A stretch of 64,000 nt of DNA from NCBI GenBank assembly GCA_037951105.1, contig JBAMJV010000899.1, positions 1 through 64,000 of the forward strand, written 5' to 3'. The notes under the pieces are model-generated. The model saw nothing but the letters and a program-made list of their open reading frames with translations, was not told where the DNA came from and searched no databases. The position numbers and the translations under genes are program-made. Source of the stretch: Echinarachnius parma (taxonomy: Eukaryota; Echinodermata; Echinoidea; Clypeasteroida; Echinarachniidae). This document shows positions 8,800 through 57,650 of this stretch, in pieces (the stretch's first letter is position 1; every line of letters starts with the position of its first letter).

Positions 8800-9545
8800 A
8801 TGAACTCAGAGAAAAAAACACATGGGGGCCTCAGAGTCAGAGCGAATTCGCCCCTGAAATGCCAAAAAGAGCCCCCGAAAATCATAAAAGAGCCCCCATA
8901 ATTTTGCATAGAGTTAAAGGGATAGTTGAGTTTTGGTAGACTACTTATTTTTTTTGTGAGGTAATGAAAAACTGAGTGTAAAATTTGAAAGAGCATAATA
9001 TTTAAATAATAAAATCATCTTTGTTTGATCAAAATCGGTTCAGAGACGGCTGAAATATCCATAAATATAACAATTTGTAATAAACCTGGGGCCCCAGGTT
9101 TATTAGAGAATTTTGAACCAGCCATTAAAAATTCAAAAAAATGCTTCCTCTTTTCATAAAGTTACAAAATAGGTATTTAAATAGTTGTTGGTTATTTCTC
9201 TATCTAATCACTATTTCATCAAAGCATCACATGCACAATATTTTATTCAAAATGGTTGAAACCGATGAGTGATTAGAGAGCGCCCTCTTACGTTTTAATG
9301 GCTCTTTTTTAATGATAACAGGATCTTTACTACGTCATTTGTAATTTTGTGTTCCTTTCTAGTTGTCACTATTAGTTTGTAATAAATGATGCAAGTTTCG
9401 GTTACTAAAATTCAGTTTCACCAAAACTGTACTCTCCTTACCAGAACTCAACTATCCCTTTAAATGCAAATTTTAGAATAAATTAATATTTTCATGCAGG
9501 AATGCTTGAAAAGTAGCCCCGGAAAATAAATATATTTATTTTTTC
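8800..9545 (-). repeat. Dispersed repeat R, copy split by MITE A1
   Basis: R in reverse orientation: GCGAATTCGCCCCTGAAATG, AAAAGAGCCCCCGAAAATCA and TTTGCATAGAG (8845-8913) continue after the A1 element as ATGCAAATTTTAG and CTTGAAAAGTAGCCCC (9464-9545). Other R copies have the same junction uninterrupted near 34600. So A1 inserted into a resident R copy. Confidence 0.8.
8914..9463. mobile_element. TTAA-flanked MITE, family A copy 1
   Basis: TTAA at 8914-8917 and 9460-9463 encloses ends AGGGATAGTTGAGTTTTGGT and, inverted, AGGGATAGTTGAGTTCTGGT. The interior holds a 26-bp perfect palindrome (9079-9104, arms AATAAACCTGGGG) and GCGCCCTCTTACG (9280-9292), a CTCF-like motif. There is no transposase. 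It shares its interior with copies at 10468, 34732 and 51083. Confidence 0.92.
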
Positions 9546-11439: not shown

Positions 11440-11750
11440 AATCAGCGAAAAAATTAATATTTTTATTTCGGGGGCTCCTTTTATCATCTCGGGGGCTACA
11501 AATTTCCGGGCTCTTTTTCGAATTTCAGGGGCTACTATTAAGCTCTTATGCTGTAAGTGATCATCTCATGAGCATTTGATCACGATCCAAACAGAAAATC
11601 CCCCCAGAAAATCCCCAAAATCCAAAAAAAAATAAAATAAATAAATACAAAAATACATATTTTTTCTTTTTTCGGGGGCTCTTTTGGGCATTTGGGGTGC
11701 GAATTCGCCCAGCCGCCCCGTGTATATTTTTCGCTGGTTCAGATACTTGT
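11440..11750 (+). repeat. Dispersed repeat R, copy 3
   Basis: CGGGGGCTCC, CGGGGGCTACAA, CGGGCTCTTTTTCGAATTTC and TTTCGGGGGCTCTTTTGGGC end in GCGAATTCGCCC and CCCCGTGTATATTTTT. It shares the ATGCTGTAAGTGATCAT insert with copy 2. Confidence 0.85.
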
Positions 11751-15309: not shown

Positions 15310-15512
15310 AGCCGCGGGCTTCCAAAAAGGTGCGTAAGACTAGTTGCCACTAGACCAGGTACCCATTTATTATATACCTGGGTAGAGAGCAGCAATAGTG
15401 AATTAGATGTCTTCCTGAAGGACAAACGCAGTGGGTGTACATGTGGGGTTTGAACTCTGGATCTCATGATTGGAAAGCCCGCGCTCTACCAATCTTGCCA
15501 CACCACGTCCAC
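15310..15512 (-). mobile_element. tRNA-derived SINE
   Basis: Read on the minus strand, the head begins GGACGTGGTGTGGCAAGATT and GGTAGAGCGCGGGC (box A-like). It continues with an anticodon-arm-like segment, then AGAGTTCAAACCCC (box B-like). The body carries TCCTTCAGGAAGACATC and a hairpin with arms CCAGGTA / TACCTGG near 15355-15385. This head-body layout is typical of tRNA-derived SINEs. Boxes are partly degraded, so the copy is probably old. No flanking target duplication was identified. Confidence 0.75.
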
Positions 15513-16609: not shown

Positions 16610-17312
16610 TCCCCCCCCCCCCCCCATGCGTCAAAGCAGTCTCCCCCCCCCATGCGTCAAAGCAGTCTCCCTTGCTGCGTGGCTACCCCCCCCCCCCCCC
16701 CATGCGTCAAAGCAGTCTCCCTTGCTGCGTGGCTACCCCCCCCCCCCATGCGTCAAAGCAGTCTCCCTTGCTGCGTGGCTACCCCCCCCCCTATGCGTCA
16801 AAGCAGTCTTCCTTGCTGCGTGGCTACCCCCCCCCCCCCATGCGTCAAAGCAGTCTCCATTGCTGCGTGGCTACCCCCCCCCCCCATGCGTCAAAGCAGT
16901 CTCCCTTGCTGCGTGGCTACCCCCCCCCCCCCATGCGTCAAAGCAGTCTCCCTTGCTGCGTGACTACCCCCCCCCCCCCCATGCGTCAAAGCAGTCTCCC
17001 TTGCTGCGTGGCTACCCCCCCCCCCCCCCTATGCGTCAAAGCAATCTTCCTTGCTGCGTGGCTACCCCCCCCCCCCCATGCGTCAAAGCAGTCTCCCTTG
17101 CTGCGTGGCTACCCCCACCCCCCCCCCCCCCCCATGCGTCAAAGCAGTCTCCCTTGCTGCGTGGCTACCCCCCCCCCCCCCCCATGCGTCAAAGCAGTCT
17201 CCCTTGCTGCGTGACTACCCCCCCCCCCATGCGTCAAAGCAGTCTCCCTTGCTGCGTGACTACCCCCCCCCTCCCATGCGTCGAAGCAGTCTCCCTTGCT
17301 GCGTGGCTACCC
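16610..17312. repeat. Minisatellite: 35-bp core plus variable C tract, about 15 copies
   Basis: Core ATGCGTCAAAGCAGTCTCCC then TTGCTGCGTGGCTAC, followed by 8-20 C. The cores are nearly invariant (a few TATGCG, TTCC, GTGACTAC variants), while tract length changes in nearly every unit. All three forward frames stay open for hundreds of bases because the core has no stop in two of three phases. This is not evidence of a protein. Confidence 0.95.
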
Positions 17313-17354
17313 CCCTCACCTGCCCTCCCCACTCCCATCCACCTATCGATTCGA

Positions 17355-19246: not shown

Positions 19247-19476
19247 TTACTGTATCTGCCATATATTTCGCGAGGGTTTTATTTTTTGTGAATCGCGAAA
19301 TTAACAACACGCTAAAATATTGACTCCAAATGCAAAGCAATACATGTACATGTATTGCTTTGCATTACTGCACTAGCATCTCTCTCAAGACAGTCATGTT
19401 GGTAACGGCCGAACATGAAATTAACCACTCGCGAAATTGTCATAAAGTCCGGATTTGAGAAAATGTACAGTAGTAC
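19247..19476. mobile_element. L-like MITE with a 38-bp central palindrome
   Basis: Ends TACTGTATCTG and TACAGTA, with TTTCGCGAGG / CTCGCGAAAT phrases as in family L at 4299. At its centre (19329-19366) lies a perfect palindrome with arms AATGCAAAGCAATACATGT. The terminal repeats are short, so the exact ends are uncertain. Confidence 0.6.
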
Positions 19477-25870: not shown

Positions 25871-25912
25871 ACCCAAGTTGATTTTCTGCATTTCAAATGT
25901 CTGTTCCATCTA

Positions 25913-26137
25913 CAGTGTAACCAACAATTATTTGGACACCCTGAAAAATAGGAAACTAATTATTTTGATAATTTTTCAAAAATGGTCTTATCTTGATTTC
26001 AACAAAGCAGCATCTAATAAACACATACAATGAATTTTAGGCAGATTTTTACCAAACATTTTCTTCAAAATTTGTTCTAGCATCATTTAAATTAAAATGA
26101 TTTTTTCAAGGTGTCCAAATAATTCTTGGGTACACTG
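25913..26137. mobile_element. Tc1/mariner-type MITE
   Basis: A 225-bp element with ends CAGTGTAACCAACAATTATT and, inverted, CAGTGTACCCAAGAATTATT, continuing as TGGACACC-TTGAAAAA on both arms (about 35 bp alike). TA lies directly outside both ends (25911-25912 and 26138-26139). CAGT termini with TA duplication are typical of Tc1/mariner. No transposase. Confidence 0.92.
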
Positions 26138-26139
26138 TA

Positions 26140-26800
26140 GGTCCTTTAAATTCCGGTCCTAATATGTCCCAAGTTTCTGTTGATTTCATTATCAGTTGTT
26201 TCCTTATTTCATCTGGTTCTAAATTATCCCAAGTCCCCACTTATTTTTTATCATCCACTTAACTAAGTCCATTCTCTCAATGTCCTTTAAATGCTAGTCC
26301 GTTCCCCTAGGTCCTTTATCAACAGGGACCAGGACTTTGGACCTGTTCTAGTGTTTGTTTGGTCTGCTTTGTCTGGGTCTGAAGTTGATTCAGTCGCTCC
26401 TTGTGGTCCTTGTCTCAGACTGGCATTGTAATTGATTTTTCCTATCTCACATTTTATTTAAAGATTATGATAATGATAAATGGATGATAATAGTTTAAGA
26501 TAAACTTGTTGATTATATGTGTGTCAGCTTTCTATCCTTTATTTGTGATTTTCAAGTTTGGTTTATTTGTAAAAATAGAACAATTGTTAAAAAAAATAGT
26601 TCCAACCGGCTCCAAATTTCAAGAGGGACCCTTCTACTCCCCAAAAGTAAGGATAATTTAAAAGATTGTCAATTCGACCAAGTTTGCAAGTCAATTTGTT
26701 GTTAAGCACCCTAGGTCTAAGTTCAGTTTTTGTACCCCAGCCTAATTGTACTTCAAATCAGCTGTAGTGTGAGAAAAATATTAAATCTATAGGAATTTGA
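26140..26800. other. No gene seen; degenerate GTCC-rich repeats
   Basis: Loose repeats around TCCTTTAAAT, GTCCCAAGTTTC and TCCCAAGTCCCC (26140-26420) suggest an old short-unit array. The remainder is AT-rich and empty. Confidence 0.45.
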
Positions 26801-32496: not shown

Positions 32497-32816
32497 CCAG
32501 GGGGGTGTTTCACAAAGATCCTAAGTTGAACTTAACTTTAAGTTGGACTTAGAAACTATGGAAAGCTGTTCGTTTTTTTGAAACACTTTTGTCAAATTTC
32601 TTTTAAAAGGCATACAATGTTGATTCAAATCATTGATATTTTCTATTATCAAGGGGATTTCATGTTTTTGATGTAAAATTGATGAATGAGTCAAAAATTC
32701 TTGGAATTCTTGCTTTTGAATATATTTTATTCAAAGGCTACAAATGGCTTTCCATAATTGTTAAGTCCAACTTAGAGTTAAGTTCAACTTAGGATCTTTG
32801 TGAAACACCCCCCTGG
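32497..32816. mobile_element. Foldback MITE, family N, ~59-bp terminal inverted repeats
   Basis: Left end CCAGGGGGGTGTTTCACAAA, GATCCTAAGTTGAACTTAAC; the right end is its reverse complement with about 55 of 59 identical. The central 200 bp is AT-rich. The CAGGG start recalls hAT ends, but no 8-bp flanking duplication is visible, so the superfamily is left open. Confidence 0.9.
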
Positions 32817-33551: not shown

Positions 33552-33689
33552 TCCGTTCTCTGCTAGATTCTGAAAACCGCATAAATAGTCTTGTACAAGT
33601 TAAAATGAGCAGTTTTTGCTACTATGGTATGGTAGATGTGACATGAATGTGATTAATCAAATAAATGATTCTTAGGTTGGGTGAATTTG

Positions 33690-33940
33690 ATTATATTAAA
33701 TAATTTACCTTATCCCAACATAAATAAACACCGAATGTTCAGTGCGTGTTTGAGCCGCTGTGAAAAAATCATCGGGGCAATCTCGGTGGTATAGTGGTAT
33801 GACGCCTGTCTAGCAATCAGGAGGTTGTGGGTTCGATTCCTACCCGAGTCCGCCTGTGATATTTTTTCACAGCGGCTCAAACACGCACTGAACATTCGGT
33901 GTTTATTTATGTTGGGATAAGGTAAATTATTTAATATAAT
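33690..33940. mobile_element. tRNA-bearing foldback element, perfect 80-bp arms
   Basis: Left arm 33690-33769 and right arm 33861-33940 are exact reverse complements over all 80 positions (ATTATATTAAATAATTTACC ... GCCGCTGTGAAAAAAT). The 91-bp loop holds one tRNA-like gene. Identity stops abruptly just outside (GAATTTG left, GAATGTG right). No arm divergence means a very recent origin, ongoing gene conversion, or an assembly fold. It is not a SINE pair, because only one tRNA unit is present. I know of no named family with this layout. Confidence 0.85.
33780..33851 (+). tRNA. tRNA-like unit (AGC-type anticodon loop) inside the palindrome
   Basis: 72 nt. Box A TGGTATAGTGG (33787-33797) and box B GGTTCGATTCC (33830-33840) are intact. 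The T-arm GTGGG/CCTAC pairs fully with one GU. The anticodon stem CCTGT/TCAGG has four pairs and one TT mismatch around loop CTAGCAA, giving AGC at 33812-33814 (nominally alanine). The acceptor ATCTCGG/CCGAGTC pairs at five of seven positions, and the D stem is weak. A T6 run (33862-33867), a possible Pol III terminator, opens the right arm. More likely a transcribable SINE-head-like tRNA relic than a translating tRNA. Confidence 0.6.
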
Positions 33941-34430
33941 GAATGTGATTGTTTTTGTGTTGAGAAGTATTTCTCATAGTGTGTATTATTTTGCCTTAGA
34001 ACTTTTAAATGTTGACATTTTAATTTTTATTTTGAGTATTTCCTCCATAGTGCTTGTTTAAATGCGATTCTACAAAATGTTTAAATGATTAAAATAATAA
34101 TTTCTAGTGCTTTTAAAAACATTTAAAATGAAAAATGTATTATTTTCCTCTGGAATAATGATTTTGAAATTATTATTTTATAATTTTCCCCTTGAATAAT
34201 GATTATATTTTATAACTAATTGTGTTATTTTTCCCATTTGTTTCAATGTTTCTGCAGGAACAGGACCTAGTCCGGTGGAATTTAATGTGGATTAAATCCC
34301 AGGACCGTTGTGTTCTCTTTTTATTCCGTCATTTGGAGCTCGTTGTCGACAGGATTCATAACTGCTTCTGTTAAATTGTCAAGGTATGTATTATTTAGAT
34401 GTAAACATTACTTATACATTGTCCATGAAA
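33941..34430. other. AT-rich spacer, no gene seen
   Basis: Repeated TTATTTTCC-type and AATAATGATT phrases (34135-34235) indicate a small diverged tandem repeat of about 50 bp. Nothing else. Confidence 0.45.
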
Positions 34431-34434
34431 AGGC

Positions 34435-34690
34435 TTTGAGCGCAAATTTGCCCCCAAAATGCCAAAAGAGCCCCCGAAAATTATTTAAAGAGCCCCTGAA
34501 ATTATGCATAGAGATCGATGCCAATCAAATATTGTCCATAAAAAGGCTGAGGGCAAATTTGCCCCTAAAATCATAAAAGAGCCCCTGAAAATATGCATCT
34601 ATAGTTCAATGCAAATCAAATATCAGAGTTTTATTTTCATGCTGGCAAGCTTGAAAGGTAGCCCCTGAAAAATTAATTTCAATTTTGTCC
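34435..34690 (-). repeat. Dispersed repeat R, copy 10 (internally duplicated)
   Basis: GCAAATTTGCCCCCAAAATG, AGAGCCCCCGAAAATTATTT, then a second GGCAAATTTGCCCCTAAAAT and AGCCCCTGAAAATATGCATC, ending CTTGAAAGGTAGCCCC. About 110 bp of the unit is duplicated in tandem. This copy shows the uninterrupted site where A1 inserted in the 8.9-kb copy. Confidence 0.85.
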
Positions 34691-37784: not shown

Positions 37785-37945
37785 AATAAATTACTTTTTG
37801 TTTCTTCGGGGGCTACTTTTGAAAGCATGCTTGCATGAAATTTGTTTTGCATTGAACTCTATGCAAATTTACGGGGGCTCTTTTTTGGCATTTGGGGGGC
37901 GAATTTGCCCGAGGCCCCCCCCCCCCCCCCTGTGTATTTTTGTTG
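37785..37945 (+). repeat. Dispersed repeat R, copy 11
   Basis: TTCGGGGGCTACTTTTGAAA, GCATGCTTGCATGAAATTTG, TTTGCATTGAACTCTATGCA, GGGGGCTCTTTTTTGGCATT, GGCGAATTTGCCCGAGGCC, then a C18 tract and TGTGTATTTTT. It defines most of the R consensus. Here the C tract replaces the usual CCCCC. Confidence 0.9.
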
Positions 37946-53489: not shown

Positions 53490-53685
53490 GAAAATATATT
53501 TTTTGGGGACTACTTTTCAGGCTTATATACCTGCATTAAAATAACATTCCAAAAATTGATTTGCATTGAACTCTAGATGCAAATTTTCCGGAGCTCTTTT
53601 AATGATTTTCGAAGGTGTTTTTTTTGGTCATTTCTGGGGCGAATTTGCCCCGATCCCCGTGTATTAAAAAAAATAATTTGTGCAC
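53490..53685 (+). repeat. Dispersed repeat R, copy 13
   Basis: TTTTGGGGACTACTTTTCAG, AAATTGATTTGCATTGAACT, CTAGATGCAAATTTTCCGGA, GCTCTTTTAATGATTTTCGA, GGGGCGAATTTGCCCCGATC and CCCGTGTATT. Confidence 0.85.
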
Positions 53686-53970: not shown

Positions 53971-54004
53971 TCAGGATTTGGACAATGTTACTTAGTCCCT
54001 TTAA
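53971..54004. mobile_element. Truncated family B end
   Basis: TTTGGACAATGTTACTTAGT then CCCTTTAA is the reverse complement of the B left terminus, with its TTAA (54001-54004 region). The rest of the element is missing, so this is a broken copy. Confidence 0.75.
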
Positions 54005-54180
54005 TATTCATTTCCCATGCTAAAATATGCCAGACAGGTGAGGCTTCGATGGGGCTCTGAGGGGGGCATTCTCTGCTCGCTGCCCAGGGTATAAAAGGGA
54101 GATTTCTTCCAATTGCACATCTACGATATAGACTGTAAAGCAGTGACATCTCTGTATAGCTAGTCAGACCCGTAATGCCG

Positions 54181-54337
54181 TAGGGGCCATCTACAAAGTA
54201 CGTAGGCAAATTATTGTCCGAAATTGACCCCCTCCCCCCTTGCACGCACTTTGTATACACATGGTTAATATATCGTACGCATTAGCGTGAACCCCCCCCC
54301 CCCCCTCGTGCGTACATACATTGTAGATGGCCCCGTA
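54181..54337. mobile_element. Small foldback element, family J
   Basis: TAGGGGCCATCTACAAAGTA and, at the right, inverted ACGGGGCCATCTACAATGTA; CGTA words and CGCAC words are mirrored further in. A C15 tract interrupts the right half. About 155 bp, non-coding. Confidence 0.75.
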
Positions 54338-54344
54338 CCTTTTG

Positions 54345-54960
54345 CGGGTGTTGATATCTCCACTCCCAGGGGAGCATTCCTCAGGGCATTGAGAAGATCA
54401 TTCAAATGACGGAGAGAGCCTAAAACCTGTTAGGTCTTAACTTGTGCTGATGTGCACCATCTCCACTCACAGGGGAGGAGCACCCCTTACAAGTGACTCG
54501 TGGGCAATTCAATACAGACACCATTCATATGAATGCTGTGAAAATGCTGGTCAAGGAAGGTGTGTAGAGGACTCAATATCAGGCTGGGCAATATCAATGG
54601 TCAGGCTGCTGACAATGTTTTTGTTTTGTTAAGCTTACGACGAAAGCGTTGCTACGACGAAGGCGCAGAGATCCTACTGGTTGGCCTAAACCCGTAAGGT
54701 CGTAATTTGTGCTGATGTGCACCATCTCCACTCCCAGAAGAGCACTCCTTACAAGTGGCTCATGGGCAATAGAGAGATCACGGTATGTAGAGGACTCAAT
54801 ATTTCAGTCAGACCATGCTGGCAATGTTTGTTTATTTAGCTTACGACGAAAGCGTTGCGACGACGAAGGCGCAGAGATCCTACTGGTTGGCCTAAACCCC
54901 GGCGCAGAGATCCTACTGGTTGGCCTAAACCCGTAAGGTCTTAACTTGTGCTGGTGTTAC
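54345..54960. repeat. ~260-bp tandem repeat, two units plus partial
   Basis: TCTCCACTCCCAGGGGAGCA, ATCTCCACTCACAGGGGAGG and ATCTCCACTCCCAGAAGAGC (54357, 54459 and 54725); ACGACGAAAGCGTTGC(T/G)ACG and AGATCCTACTGGTTGGCCTA repeated (last phrase three times at 54669, 54876 and 54907). It directly abuts the VNTR. Confidence 0.85.
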
Positions 54961-54964
54961 GAGG

Positions 54965-56540
54965 ACACAGGTTATGTCCTTAGGGTAGTAGGCCAAACAG
55001 ACGCATCCATCATCAAGAACGGACCGGGAACAGGACCAGGACACAGGTTATGTCCTTAGGGTAGTAGGCCAAACAGACGCATCCATCATCAAGAACGGAC
55101 CGGGAACGGGACCAGGACACAGGTTATGTCCTTAGGGTAGTAGGCCAAACAGACGCATCCATCATCAAGAACGGACCGGGAACAGGACCAGGACACAGGT
55201 TATGTCCTTAGGGTAGTAGGCCAAACAGACGCATCCATCATCAAGAACGGACCGGGAACGGGACCAGGACACAGGTTATGTCCTTAGGGTAGTAGGCCAA
55301 ACAGACGCATCCATCATCAAGAACGGACCGGGAACAGGACCAGGACACAGGTTATGTCCTTAGGGTAGTAGGCCAAACAGACGCATCCATCATCAAGAAT
55401 GGACCGGGAACAGGACCAGGACACAGGTTATGTCCTTAGGGTAGTAGGCCAAACAGACGCATCCATCATCAAGAACGGACCGGGAACAGGACCAGGACAC
55501 AGGTTATGTCCTTAGGGTAGTAGGCCAAACAGACGCATCCATCATCAAGAACGGACCGGGAACAGGACCAGGACACAGGTTATGTCCTTAAGGTAGTAGG
55601 CCAAACAGACGCATCCATCATCAAGAACGGACCGGGAACAGGACCAGGACACAGGTTATGTCCTTAGGGTAGTAGGCCAAACAGACGCATCCATCATCAA
55701 GAACGGACCGGGAACGGGACCATGTCCTTAGGGTAGTAGGCCAAACAGACGCATCCATCATCAAGAACGGACCGGGAACGGGACCATGTCCTTAGGGTAG
55801 TAGGCCAAACAGACGCATCCATCATCAAGAACGGACCGGGAACGGGACCATGTCTTTAGGGTAGTAGGCCAAACAGACGCATCCATCATCAAGAACGGAC
55901 CGGGAACGGGACCATGTCCTTAGGGTAGTAGGCCAAACAGACGCATCCATCATCAAGAACGGACCGGGAACGGGACCAGGACACAGGTTATGTCCTTAGG
56001 GTAGTAGGCCAAACAGACGCATCCATCATCAAGAACGGACCGGGAACGGGACCAGGACACAGGTTATGTCCTTAGGGTAGTAGGCCAAACAGACGCATCC
56101 ATCATCAAGAACGGACCGGGAACAGGACCAGGACACAGGTTATGTCCTTAGGGTAGTAGGCCAAACAGACGCATCCATCATCAAGAACGGACCGGGAACG
56201 GGACCATGTCCTTAGGGTAGTAGGCCAAACAGACGCATCCATCATCAAGAACGGACCGGGAACGGGACCATGTCCTTAGGGTAGTAGGCCAAACAGACGC
56301 ATCCATCATCAAGAACGGACCGGGAACGGGACCAGGACACAGGTTATGTCCTTAGGGTAGTAGGCCAAACAGACGCATCCATCATCAAGAACGGACCGGG
56401 AACGGGACCATGTCCTTAGGGTAGTAGGCCAAACAGACGCATCCATCATCAAGAACGGACCGGGAACGGGACCATGTCCTTAGGGTAGTAGGCCAAACAG
56501 ACGCATCCATCATCAAGAACGGACCAGGAACGGGACCAAC
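54965..56540. repeat. VNTR with interleaved 76- and 64-bp units, 22 copies
   Basis: Unit: TGTCCTTAGGGTAGTAGGCC, AAACAGACGCATCCATCATC, AAGAACGGACCGGGAAC(A/G)GG, ACC. The long form adds AGGACACAGGTT before ATGTCC, which makes a GGACA...TGTCC hairpin. TGTCC starts: ten 76-bp-spaced units (54975-55659), then 64-bp steps to 55915, 76 to 56143, 64 to 56271, 76 to 56347, 64 to 56475. Copies are nearly identical, so expansion is recent. Neither length is a multiple of three, so frames do not persist. Confidence 0.97.
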
Positions 56541-56544
56541 AAAA

Positions 56545-57650
56545 AATCTTGTCTTTCTATCTTGAAAACGACCATCTCCTAAGCTATGGGTATTATGGTT
56601 ACGGTTAGGGTTAGCTTCATTCTTGTTGGTTTCAAAATAAAAACAGAACTTGGAACATGTAGCTGAGCTAGTGTAAACACGATTATATTCGCGCAATTAA
56701 TATTTCACACGCTGGGCAGCACAAAATTGACATTCCCATGTTCTTAAATTCGCATTGAGCATTTGTTCATTTATTTTTCCTTTCCAAGAGGAACGTAGGC
56801 ATCATTCACAAACACATTATACATGTAAGGAAATTAGAGTTTTTCAAAACTGTCTTACAGGCTCAGATAGTACATCATGCGCGCCCGATGTGGATAGGTA
56901 CTGCATGCGCTAAAATAACAAAATAATGTGATATTATAACTGCGGTACTCTACTATAACTTTGTTTTCAATTTAAACAAATGATATTTGTATCTTATTAG
57001 TATTACCAAAGTTACCAACGTAGCGATATCACATTCTTTTGTATTCTGGCTTTTGGTAGTGGGTTGGAGCTGGGCGATTGCCTCCTTAGCAACCGCTAGG
57101 TCAGAAAATAGGGCTTGCCTGACACTGTTTAGAACCGTTACTCAAGGTCAAGTTCTATTTCATTTTGAAATCGTCAAGAATGAAGCATAAAGACTAATCT
57201 GCAAAATATGTGCAAAATCATCAAGATGTTTAGAATTTGTTCACTTTGTCGGTTTTAATTTCTAAAATTTGTGTTAAATAATTATACCAACTTGTGTTAA
57301 CTGTAGCGTATAGATCCATGTAATTATAGATAGAGCAAGTTCCCTGCAATGTTATTACACAGTCTCTGCTTCATCCAAATTTGTGTGAATCTTTTCAATT
57401 TTCATGACCCTAAAAATCTGTAATATTTTATTTTACCACAATACAAATGAAACATAATCTGCATGGTAATGTTTGCATTTTGTGAAATGTACCGATTGTT
57501 TTTTAATCACTTTTTATCTCCTTTTCTGATGATTTGTTATAGAAGTAGTGGCCATAGATATTTAGTAACTAGATTTATTTTGTGCCTTTGTACTTTGTAG
57601 CCACTTTATAATTTACCTCGGGACTGCATTTTGGTCCGTCTGATCAGTTT
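56545..57650. other. No gene seen
   Basis: AT-rich spacer; a short GGTTAGGGTTAGC stretch near 56600 is the only telomere-like word. A 67-codon frame at 56987-57190 is not called. Confidence 0.45.

What the first reader, a model, noticed from the sequence alone, without database searches (positions are those of the whole stretch)
33690..33940. tRNA-like gene in the loop of a perfect 80-bp-arm palindrome
The two 80-bp arms are exact reverse complements with no mismatch. The 91-bp loop contains one tRNA-like unit with intact Pol III boxes A and B, and a T6 run just inside the right arm could end Pol III transcription. The arms show no decay although neighbouring repeats do. This could be an undescribed foldback element that carries its own Pol III promoter, or a SINE captured by a MITE. 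Pol III output would include the start of one arm only.
Basis: partly seen in the sequence, partly recalled or inferred. Interest (0 to 1): 0.8.

Follow-up and report, generated by a model that had tools for sequence, protein, structure and literature searches.

The report
tRNA-like unit inside a perfect hairpin
A short tRNA-like stretch sits between two identical mirror-image 80-base arms in what is probably an animal genome; it may be a young, small jumping element that picked up a tRNA-like transcription unit, but a one-off copying error cannot be excluded without the source genome.

Summary
Arms 33690-33769 and 33861-33940 are exact 80-bp reverse complements around a 91-bp loop. The loop is almost wholly one tRNA-like unit (ARAGORN 33780-33851; Rfam tRNA 40.9 bits) with A box, B box and T6 at 33862-33867. 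It is probably not a working tRNA-Ala: 5 of 7 acceptor pairs, no G3:U70, folding no better than shuffles. A near direct repeat (10 of 11) meets both palindrome ends; read symmetrically it is a 9-bp duplication (8 of 9) around 79-bp inverted repeats. A score as good occurs at 27 of 4199 local positions. This fits a non-autonomous foldback DNA transposon (Mutator-like?) carrying a tRNA-derived Pol III unit (0.48). The main rival is a one-off template-switch copy of the unit's 3' flank (0.3), favoured by the T6 placement. An exact 12-bp repeat that misses the left end stays unexplained. The source genome is not held and no second copy was found, so mobility is unproven. SINE capture is not supported: no SINE body is seen. 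If mobile, a new variant of a known kind.

The parts
33690..33769 (+). left arm of the palindrome (80 bp, exact); 33691-33769 if the 9-bp duplication is taken as the boundary
33861..33940 (-). right arm, exact reverse complement of the left arm; 33861-33939 in the 9-bp duplication reading
33770..33860 (+). 91-bp loop
   Evidence: G+C 55% against 31% in the arm
33780..33851 (+). tRNA-like unit, anticodon AGC; outer two acceptor pairs do not form (A1/C72, T2/T71)
   Evidence: Rfam RF00005 33782-33848, 40.9 bits; pairs read
33787..33797 (+). A box-like TGGTATAGTGG
33830..33840 (+). B box GGTTCGATTCC
33862..33867 (+). T6, possible Pol III terminator, 10 nt between it and the tRNA-like unit; lies at the inner end of the right arm
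33682..33690 (+). left copy of candidate 9-bp target-site duplication, TGAATTTGA (11-bp form 33682-33692)
33940..33948 (+). right copy of candidate duplication, TGAATGTGA, 8 of 9 identical (11-bp form 33940-33950, 10 of 11)
33643..33654 (+). further exact 12-bp copy ATGAATGTGATT of the motif at the right end (33939-33950); leaves 35 bp outside the palindrome
   Evidence: (D10)

Best explanation
A young non-autonomous foldback DNA transposon (MITE-sized, about 249 bp; possibly Mutator-like to judge by the duplication length) whose two ends are 79-80 bp perfect inverted repeats and whose middle is a captured tRNA-derived Pol III unit. Inferred working: a transposase made elsewhere binds the inverted repeats and moves the element, leaving a 9-bp (8-11) target-site duplication; the arms stay identical because the insertion is young or because the hairpin corrects itself. 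The internal A and B boxes could recruit TFIIIC/Pol III; a transcript of about 90 nt would end at T6 at the inner edge of the right arm, so it would contain the tRNA-like unit and about 7 nt of one arm. Shown: the arms, the unit, the boxes, T6 and the near-duplication. Inferred: transposition, capture, transcription.
For: Exact long arms around a short loop. The direct repeat TGAATTTGATT / TGAATGTGATT meets both ends; in symmetric register it gives a 9-bp duplication (8 of 9) and 79-bp inverted repeats. A score as good as the 10-of-11 match, within 4 bp of both ends and in any register, occurs at 27 of 4199 local positions with the locus left out, and at 307 of 20900 positions over the whole window, which includes tandem arrays (one search was an earlier version that did not leave the locus out). 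The symmetric 9-bp form was not tested on its own. Short-spaced foldback-type repeats are common in this window: five others with arms of 39-77 nt, 81-95% complementary. The foldback Tetris has 8-10 bp duplications; MULEs have long inverted repeats, 8-10 bp duplications, and non-autonomous members that carry host gene fragments (passages of PMC4079207 and PMC5225508).
Against: No second copy was found where I could look, and the source genome is not held. The duplication carries a mismatch although 80 of 80 arm positions agree. A better, exact 12-bp repeat pairs the right end with 33643-33654 and not with the left end (0 of 4199 local positions by chance; 607 of 20900 over the whole window, arrays included); this is unexplained here. 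T6 placed 10 nt after the tRNA-like unit is unlikely by chance (T6 within 20 nt at 79 of 5000 local positions, this T6 itself not left out) and would be expected if the right arm is simply the unit's native 3' flank. Of 7 other palindromes tested for a duplication, 6 gave no candidate and 1 gave only rows inside its own arms. No convincing transposase domain was found among the 77 of 263 reading frames scanned. The arms are shorter than the >100 bp typical of MULEs, and the terminal sequence fits no superfamily that I recall.
Confidence: 0.48

Rival explanations
1. One-off inverted duplication by replication template switch: the tRNA-like unit with its native terminator and 3' flank (right arm) was there first, and 80 nt of that flank were copied in reverse onto the 5' side. 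No mobile element is involved.
For: T6 sits where a native Pol III terminator would; no second copy seen in 64 kb; template switching is known to create perfect inverted repeats and new hairpins (passages of PMC7954356 and PMC8794818).
Against: The copied stretch of 80 nt is long: the great-ape study set the expected copied length at 10, and the largest TSM-like pattern in the rRNA hairpin study was up to 59 bp. It does not predict direct repeats at both ends. Microhomology at the switch points cannot be judged without the ancestral sequence.
Confidence: 0.3
2. A SINE-like retroposon insertion: tRNA head plus right arm as body, with the body copied in inverse during insertion (snap-back or a twin-priming variant), perhaps inserted as 33655-33938 with the exact 12-bp duplication 33643-33654 / 33939-33950.
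For: tRNA-like head with good A and B boxes; exact 12-bp direct repeat, 0 of 4199 local positions by chance; AT-rich right end next to the repeat.
Against: T6 straight after the head would end the Pol III transcript before the body; no SINE body or tail recognised (no SINE library at hand); 35 bp at the left end stay unexplained; the order of segments does not fit simple twin priming (reasoned, not computed).
Confidence: 0.1
3. Assembly or sequencing artefact (fold-over of reads).
For: Perfect arms; single locus.
Against: Fold-over normally mirrors long flanks around a point; here the arms stop after 80-83 bp, the flanks differ, and a unique 91-bp loop separates the arms.
Confidence: 0.04
4. 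A functional tRNA gene whose flanks were shaped into a palindrome by selection (for example an insulator or processing signal).
For: Covariance-model score above Rfam's gathering score.
Against: Two unpaired outer acceptor positions, no G3:U70 for an AGC anticodon (identity rule recalled), and RNA folding no better than shuffles (z 0.09, 0.01 and 0.65 for the three spans with the unit).
Confidence: 0.03

Closest known systems
Foldback elements (Drosophila Tetris; also reported from sea urchin)
   Same: long inverted repeats around an unrelated middle, no conserved reading frame, duplication of about 8-10 bp (Tetris, passages)
   Different: Tetris inverted repeats are much longer (up to 1,735 bp) and contain tandem repeats; no tRNA-like middle is mentioned in the passages seen
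Mutator-like elements and Pack-MULEs
   Same: 8-10 bp duplications and host gene fragments between the inverted repeats of non-autonomous members (passages)
   Different: typical inverted repeats exceed 100 bp; no transposase relative could be tied to this element
MER6 / MER6A, a mariner MITE with an inserted V-SINE
   Same: composite of a miniature DNA transposon and Pol III-derived sequence
   Different: MER6 kept SINE body and tail and lost the tRNA head; here only a tRNA-like head with its boxes is present; MER6 has 24-bp inverted repeats and a TA duplication
Short-range template-switch inverted repeats
   Same: perfect inverted repeats arising in one step
   Different: the lengths given in the passages seen are shorter (expected 10; largest up to 59 bp), and flanking direct repeats are not predicted
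tRNA-derived SINEs
   Same: tRNA-like head with A and B boxes
   Different: no body or tail recognised; T6 directly after the head; sits inside a palindrome

Membership tests
Foldback / MULE-like DNA transposon | long near-identical terminal inverted repeats | tested here: met
   80 of 80, though shorter than the >100 bp typical of MULEs
Foldback / MULE-like DNA transposon | 8-10 bp target-site duplication at the ends | tested here: inconclusive
   9-bp with one mismatch in symmetric register; the 11-bp form has a chance of 27 of 4199 local positions; a competing exact 12-bp repeat does not abut the left end
Foldback / MULE-like DNA transposon | multiple copies with different flanks in the genome | not testable with these tools
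   source genome not held; no second copy in the window
Foldback / MULE-like DNA transposon | related autonomous element with transposase | not testable with these tools
   source genome not held; nothing convincing in the 77 of 263 window reading frames scanned
tRNA-derived SINE | tRNA-related head with A and B boxes | tested here: met
tRNA-derived SINE | no Pol III terminator between head and body | tested here: not met
   T6 at 33862-33867
tRNA-derived SINE | body plus LINE-like or simple-repeat tail | tested here: inconclusive
   no further Rfam match above gathering score in 33600-34050; no SINE library was available
functional tRNA gene (tRNA-Ala AGC) | complete acceptor stem and G3:U70 identity pair (identity rule recalled) | tested here: not met
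   5 of 7 acceptor pairs, pair 3-70 is C-G (sequence; Rfam alignment)
Template-switch inverted repeat | ancestral sequence with one arm only in a close relative | not testable with these tools
   no relative held

The most novel reading that the evidence does not exclude
A family of foldback DNA transposons in an animal genome (source unconfirmed) that carries its own complete Pol III unit (A box, B box, terminator formed by the inverted repeat itself), so that every copy seeds a short tRNA-like RNA and, on read-through, an 80-bp perfect hairpin RNA.
Probability: 0.3. Interest if true: 0.6.

Novelty: new variant of a known kind. Interest (0 to 1): 0.36.

Why it matters
If mobile, it would be a DNA transposon that spreads Pol III promoters, the reverse of MER6, in which the tRNA head was lost. 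Such copies could act as boundary elements or make hairpin and small RNAs. If it is a one-off template switch, it would be a long, clean case of a new hairpin formed next to a tRNA-like gene. Either way one genome search decides.

Tried and rejected
Search for a second copy: none in the window. In IMG/VR, an 18-mer of the arm gave 2 loci; the one read (L001) does not match the arm on either side of the 18-mer, compared by eye, and the other (L002) was not read because my script did not find a file of that name. Two further arm patterns and two loop patterns in IMG/VR gave 0; an arm pattern in prokaryote genomes gave 0. A blastn search of phage records gave 135 records, none covering 80% of the query; the 5 rows listed touch only the tRNA-like part, the other 130 were not listed. 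These collections are not expected to hold an animal element, so the misses say little.

A nested history, tRNA unit inserted into an older hairpin: I saw no direct repeat beside the unit inside the loop (read by eye). The loop end resembles the inner left arm (GAG-CCG-CTGTGA, 12 matches with two gaps), but 41 of 2000 shuffles do as well, so it was not used.

Source organism: stop-to-stop reading frames of at least 60 residues number 263, of which 215 passed a complexity filter; I gave 77 of them to Pfam. The 16 families matched one frame each, best E 0.01 to 0.094, judged noise. A homeodomain query had no hit better than E 3.3. The only informative hit is a mir-2003-like precursor with a weaker mir-10 match, both below gathering score. 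I recalled the species of mir-2003 first as cnidarian (note), then as echinoderm or hemichordate; no call confirms either, and paper searches for the name gave nothing relevant. The source is left as probably an animal.

Statistics corrected: the 12-bp test (22 of 20000) and the end-repeat test (36 of 4700 local; 292 of 20000) did not leave the locus itself out, and the 12-bp count was largely the locus; one search replaces both. The T-run counts also include the locus and were not redone.

Papers: PMC6887750 outline with abstract, section 2.4 and passages; passages only of PMC4079207, PMC5225508, PMC7954356, PMC8794818; all others as search listings. Six of the ten paper searches bore on tRNA units, SINEs and foldback or MITE elements; among the rows they listed, no title or start of abstract describes a tRNA unit in the loop of a foldback transposon. 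The papers listed were not read for this, and subscription journals are mostly missing, so this is not proof of absence. The other four searches were on mir-2003 and template switching.

Full report
What is there. The two arms, 33690-33769 and 33861-33940, are exact reverse complements (80 of 80), with a 91-bp loop. Allowing one mismatch they reach 83 nt. An 80-bp exact match at this distance is not a chance event; the fold of the strand is 22.6 standard deviations below shuffles. Among 27 inverted-repeat pairs of at least 30 nt within 3000 bp (25 shown) this is the longest, and the five others with short spacers are 81-95% complementary.

The loop. ARAGORN calls one tRNA, 33780-33851, anticodon AGC, and Rfam tRNA matches 33782-33848 at 40.9 bits, gathering score 29. 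A box 33787, B box 33830, T6 33862-33867. With relaxed boxes only one A-B pair 25-70 apart is found on the + strand, this one, and one on the - strand, at 15491/15455. The unit is probably not a working tRNA-Ala: acceptor positions 1-72 and 2-71 do not pair, position 3-70 is C-G where alanine tRNAs have G-U (identity rule recalled; bases), and free RNA folding is no better than shuffles for any of the three spans with the unit. It is better described as a tRNA-derived Pol III unit or pseudogene. T6 lies 10 nt after it; T6 within 20 nt occurs at 79 of 5000 local positions, T5 at 335, the locus included.

The ends. The best direct repeat at the palindrome ends is TGAATTTGATT (33682-33692) and TGAATGTGATT (33940-33950), 10 of 11. 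In the register that keeps both inverted repeats equal it is a 9-bp duplication with one mismatch around 33691-33939. With the locus left out, 27 of 4199 local positions and 307 of 20900 window positions score as well as the 11-bp form. Among 7 other palindromes tested the same way, 6 gave no candidate and one (25910-26140) gave only rows inside its own arms. Against this, an exact 12-bp repeat pairs 33643-33654 with 33939-33950; it occurs by chance at 0 of 4199 local and 607 of 20900 window positions, the latter including tandem arrays. It abuts the right end but leaves 35 bp at the left. I cannot reconcile both repeats with one event.

Reading. Perfect arms, a short unrelated middle, a near-duplication of 9 bp and a window with five further short-spaced foldback-type repeats (arms of 39-77 nt) favour a non-autonomous foldback DNA transposon. 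Duplications of 8-10 bp are described for Tetris and MULEs, and captured host fragments for non-autonomous MULEs; composites of MITE and SINE exist in MER6, where the tRNA head was lost. The rival is a template switch that copied the unit's 3' flank to its 5' side: T6 placement is what that predicts, but the length (80 against an expected 10 in the great-ape model and a largest case of up to 59 bp in the hairpin study) and the direct repeats speak against it. Microhomology cannot be judged without the ancestral sequence. The two are not exclusive: a template switch could have made the first hairpin, which then moved.

Limits. No source genome is held. Copy number, empty site and transcription, the tests that matter, could not be done. 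The prokaryote, phage and virus collections gave no usable relative. The claim that it is mobile is therefore an inference from anatomy.

Verdict.

Noticed in passing
window 54868-56538: A mir-2003-like microRNA precursor (Rfam RF04259, 100 bits, below its gathering score of 114, 54915-55001) has one exact 5' arm sequence (54928), while the 3' arm segment is amplified into a tandem array of 64-76 bp units: 22 copies with at most 3 mismatches to a 29-nt core within 54000-57200, 13 of them exact. A 33-bp unit with the start of the 5' arm is doubled at 54868-54932, and its core recurs at 54673.
   Followed up: partly
window 32497-32816: MITE-like palindrome about 870 bp upstream, 77-nt arms 91% complementary, ends CCAGGGGGGTGTTTCACAAAGATCC; no target-site duplication found.
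   Followed up: partly
window 19329-19366: Exact 38-bp palindrome with no loop, AATGCAAAGCAATACATGT and its reverse complement.
   Followed up: no
window 16617-17315: Tandem array of a C-rich 47-bp unit, 14 copies, with long open frames in two phases.
   Followed up: no
window 8842-8882, 11669-11708, 34437-34672, 37836-37910, 53492-53609: Dispersed repeat with GCCCCTGAAAAT / AAAAGAGCCCCCGAAAA motifs, several copies on both strands.
   Followed up: no
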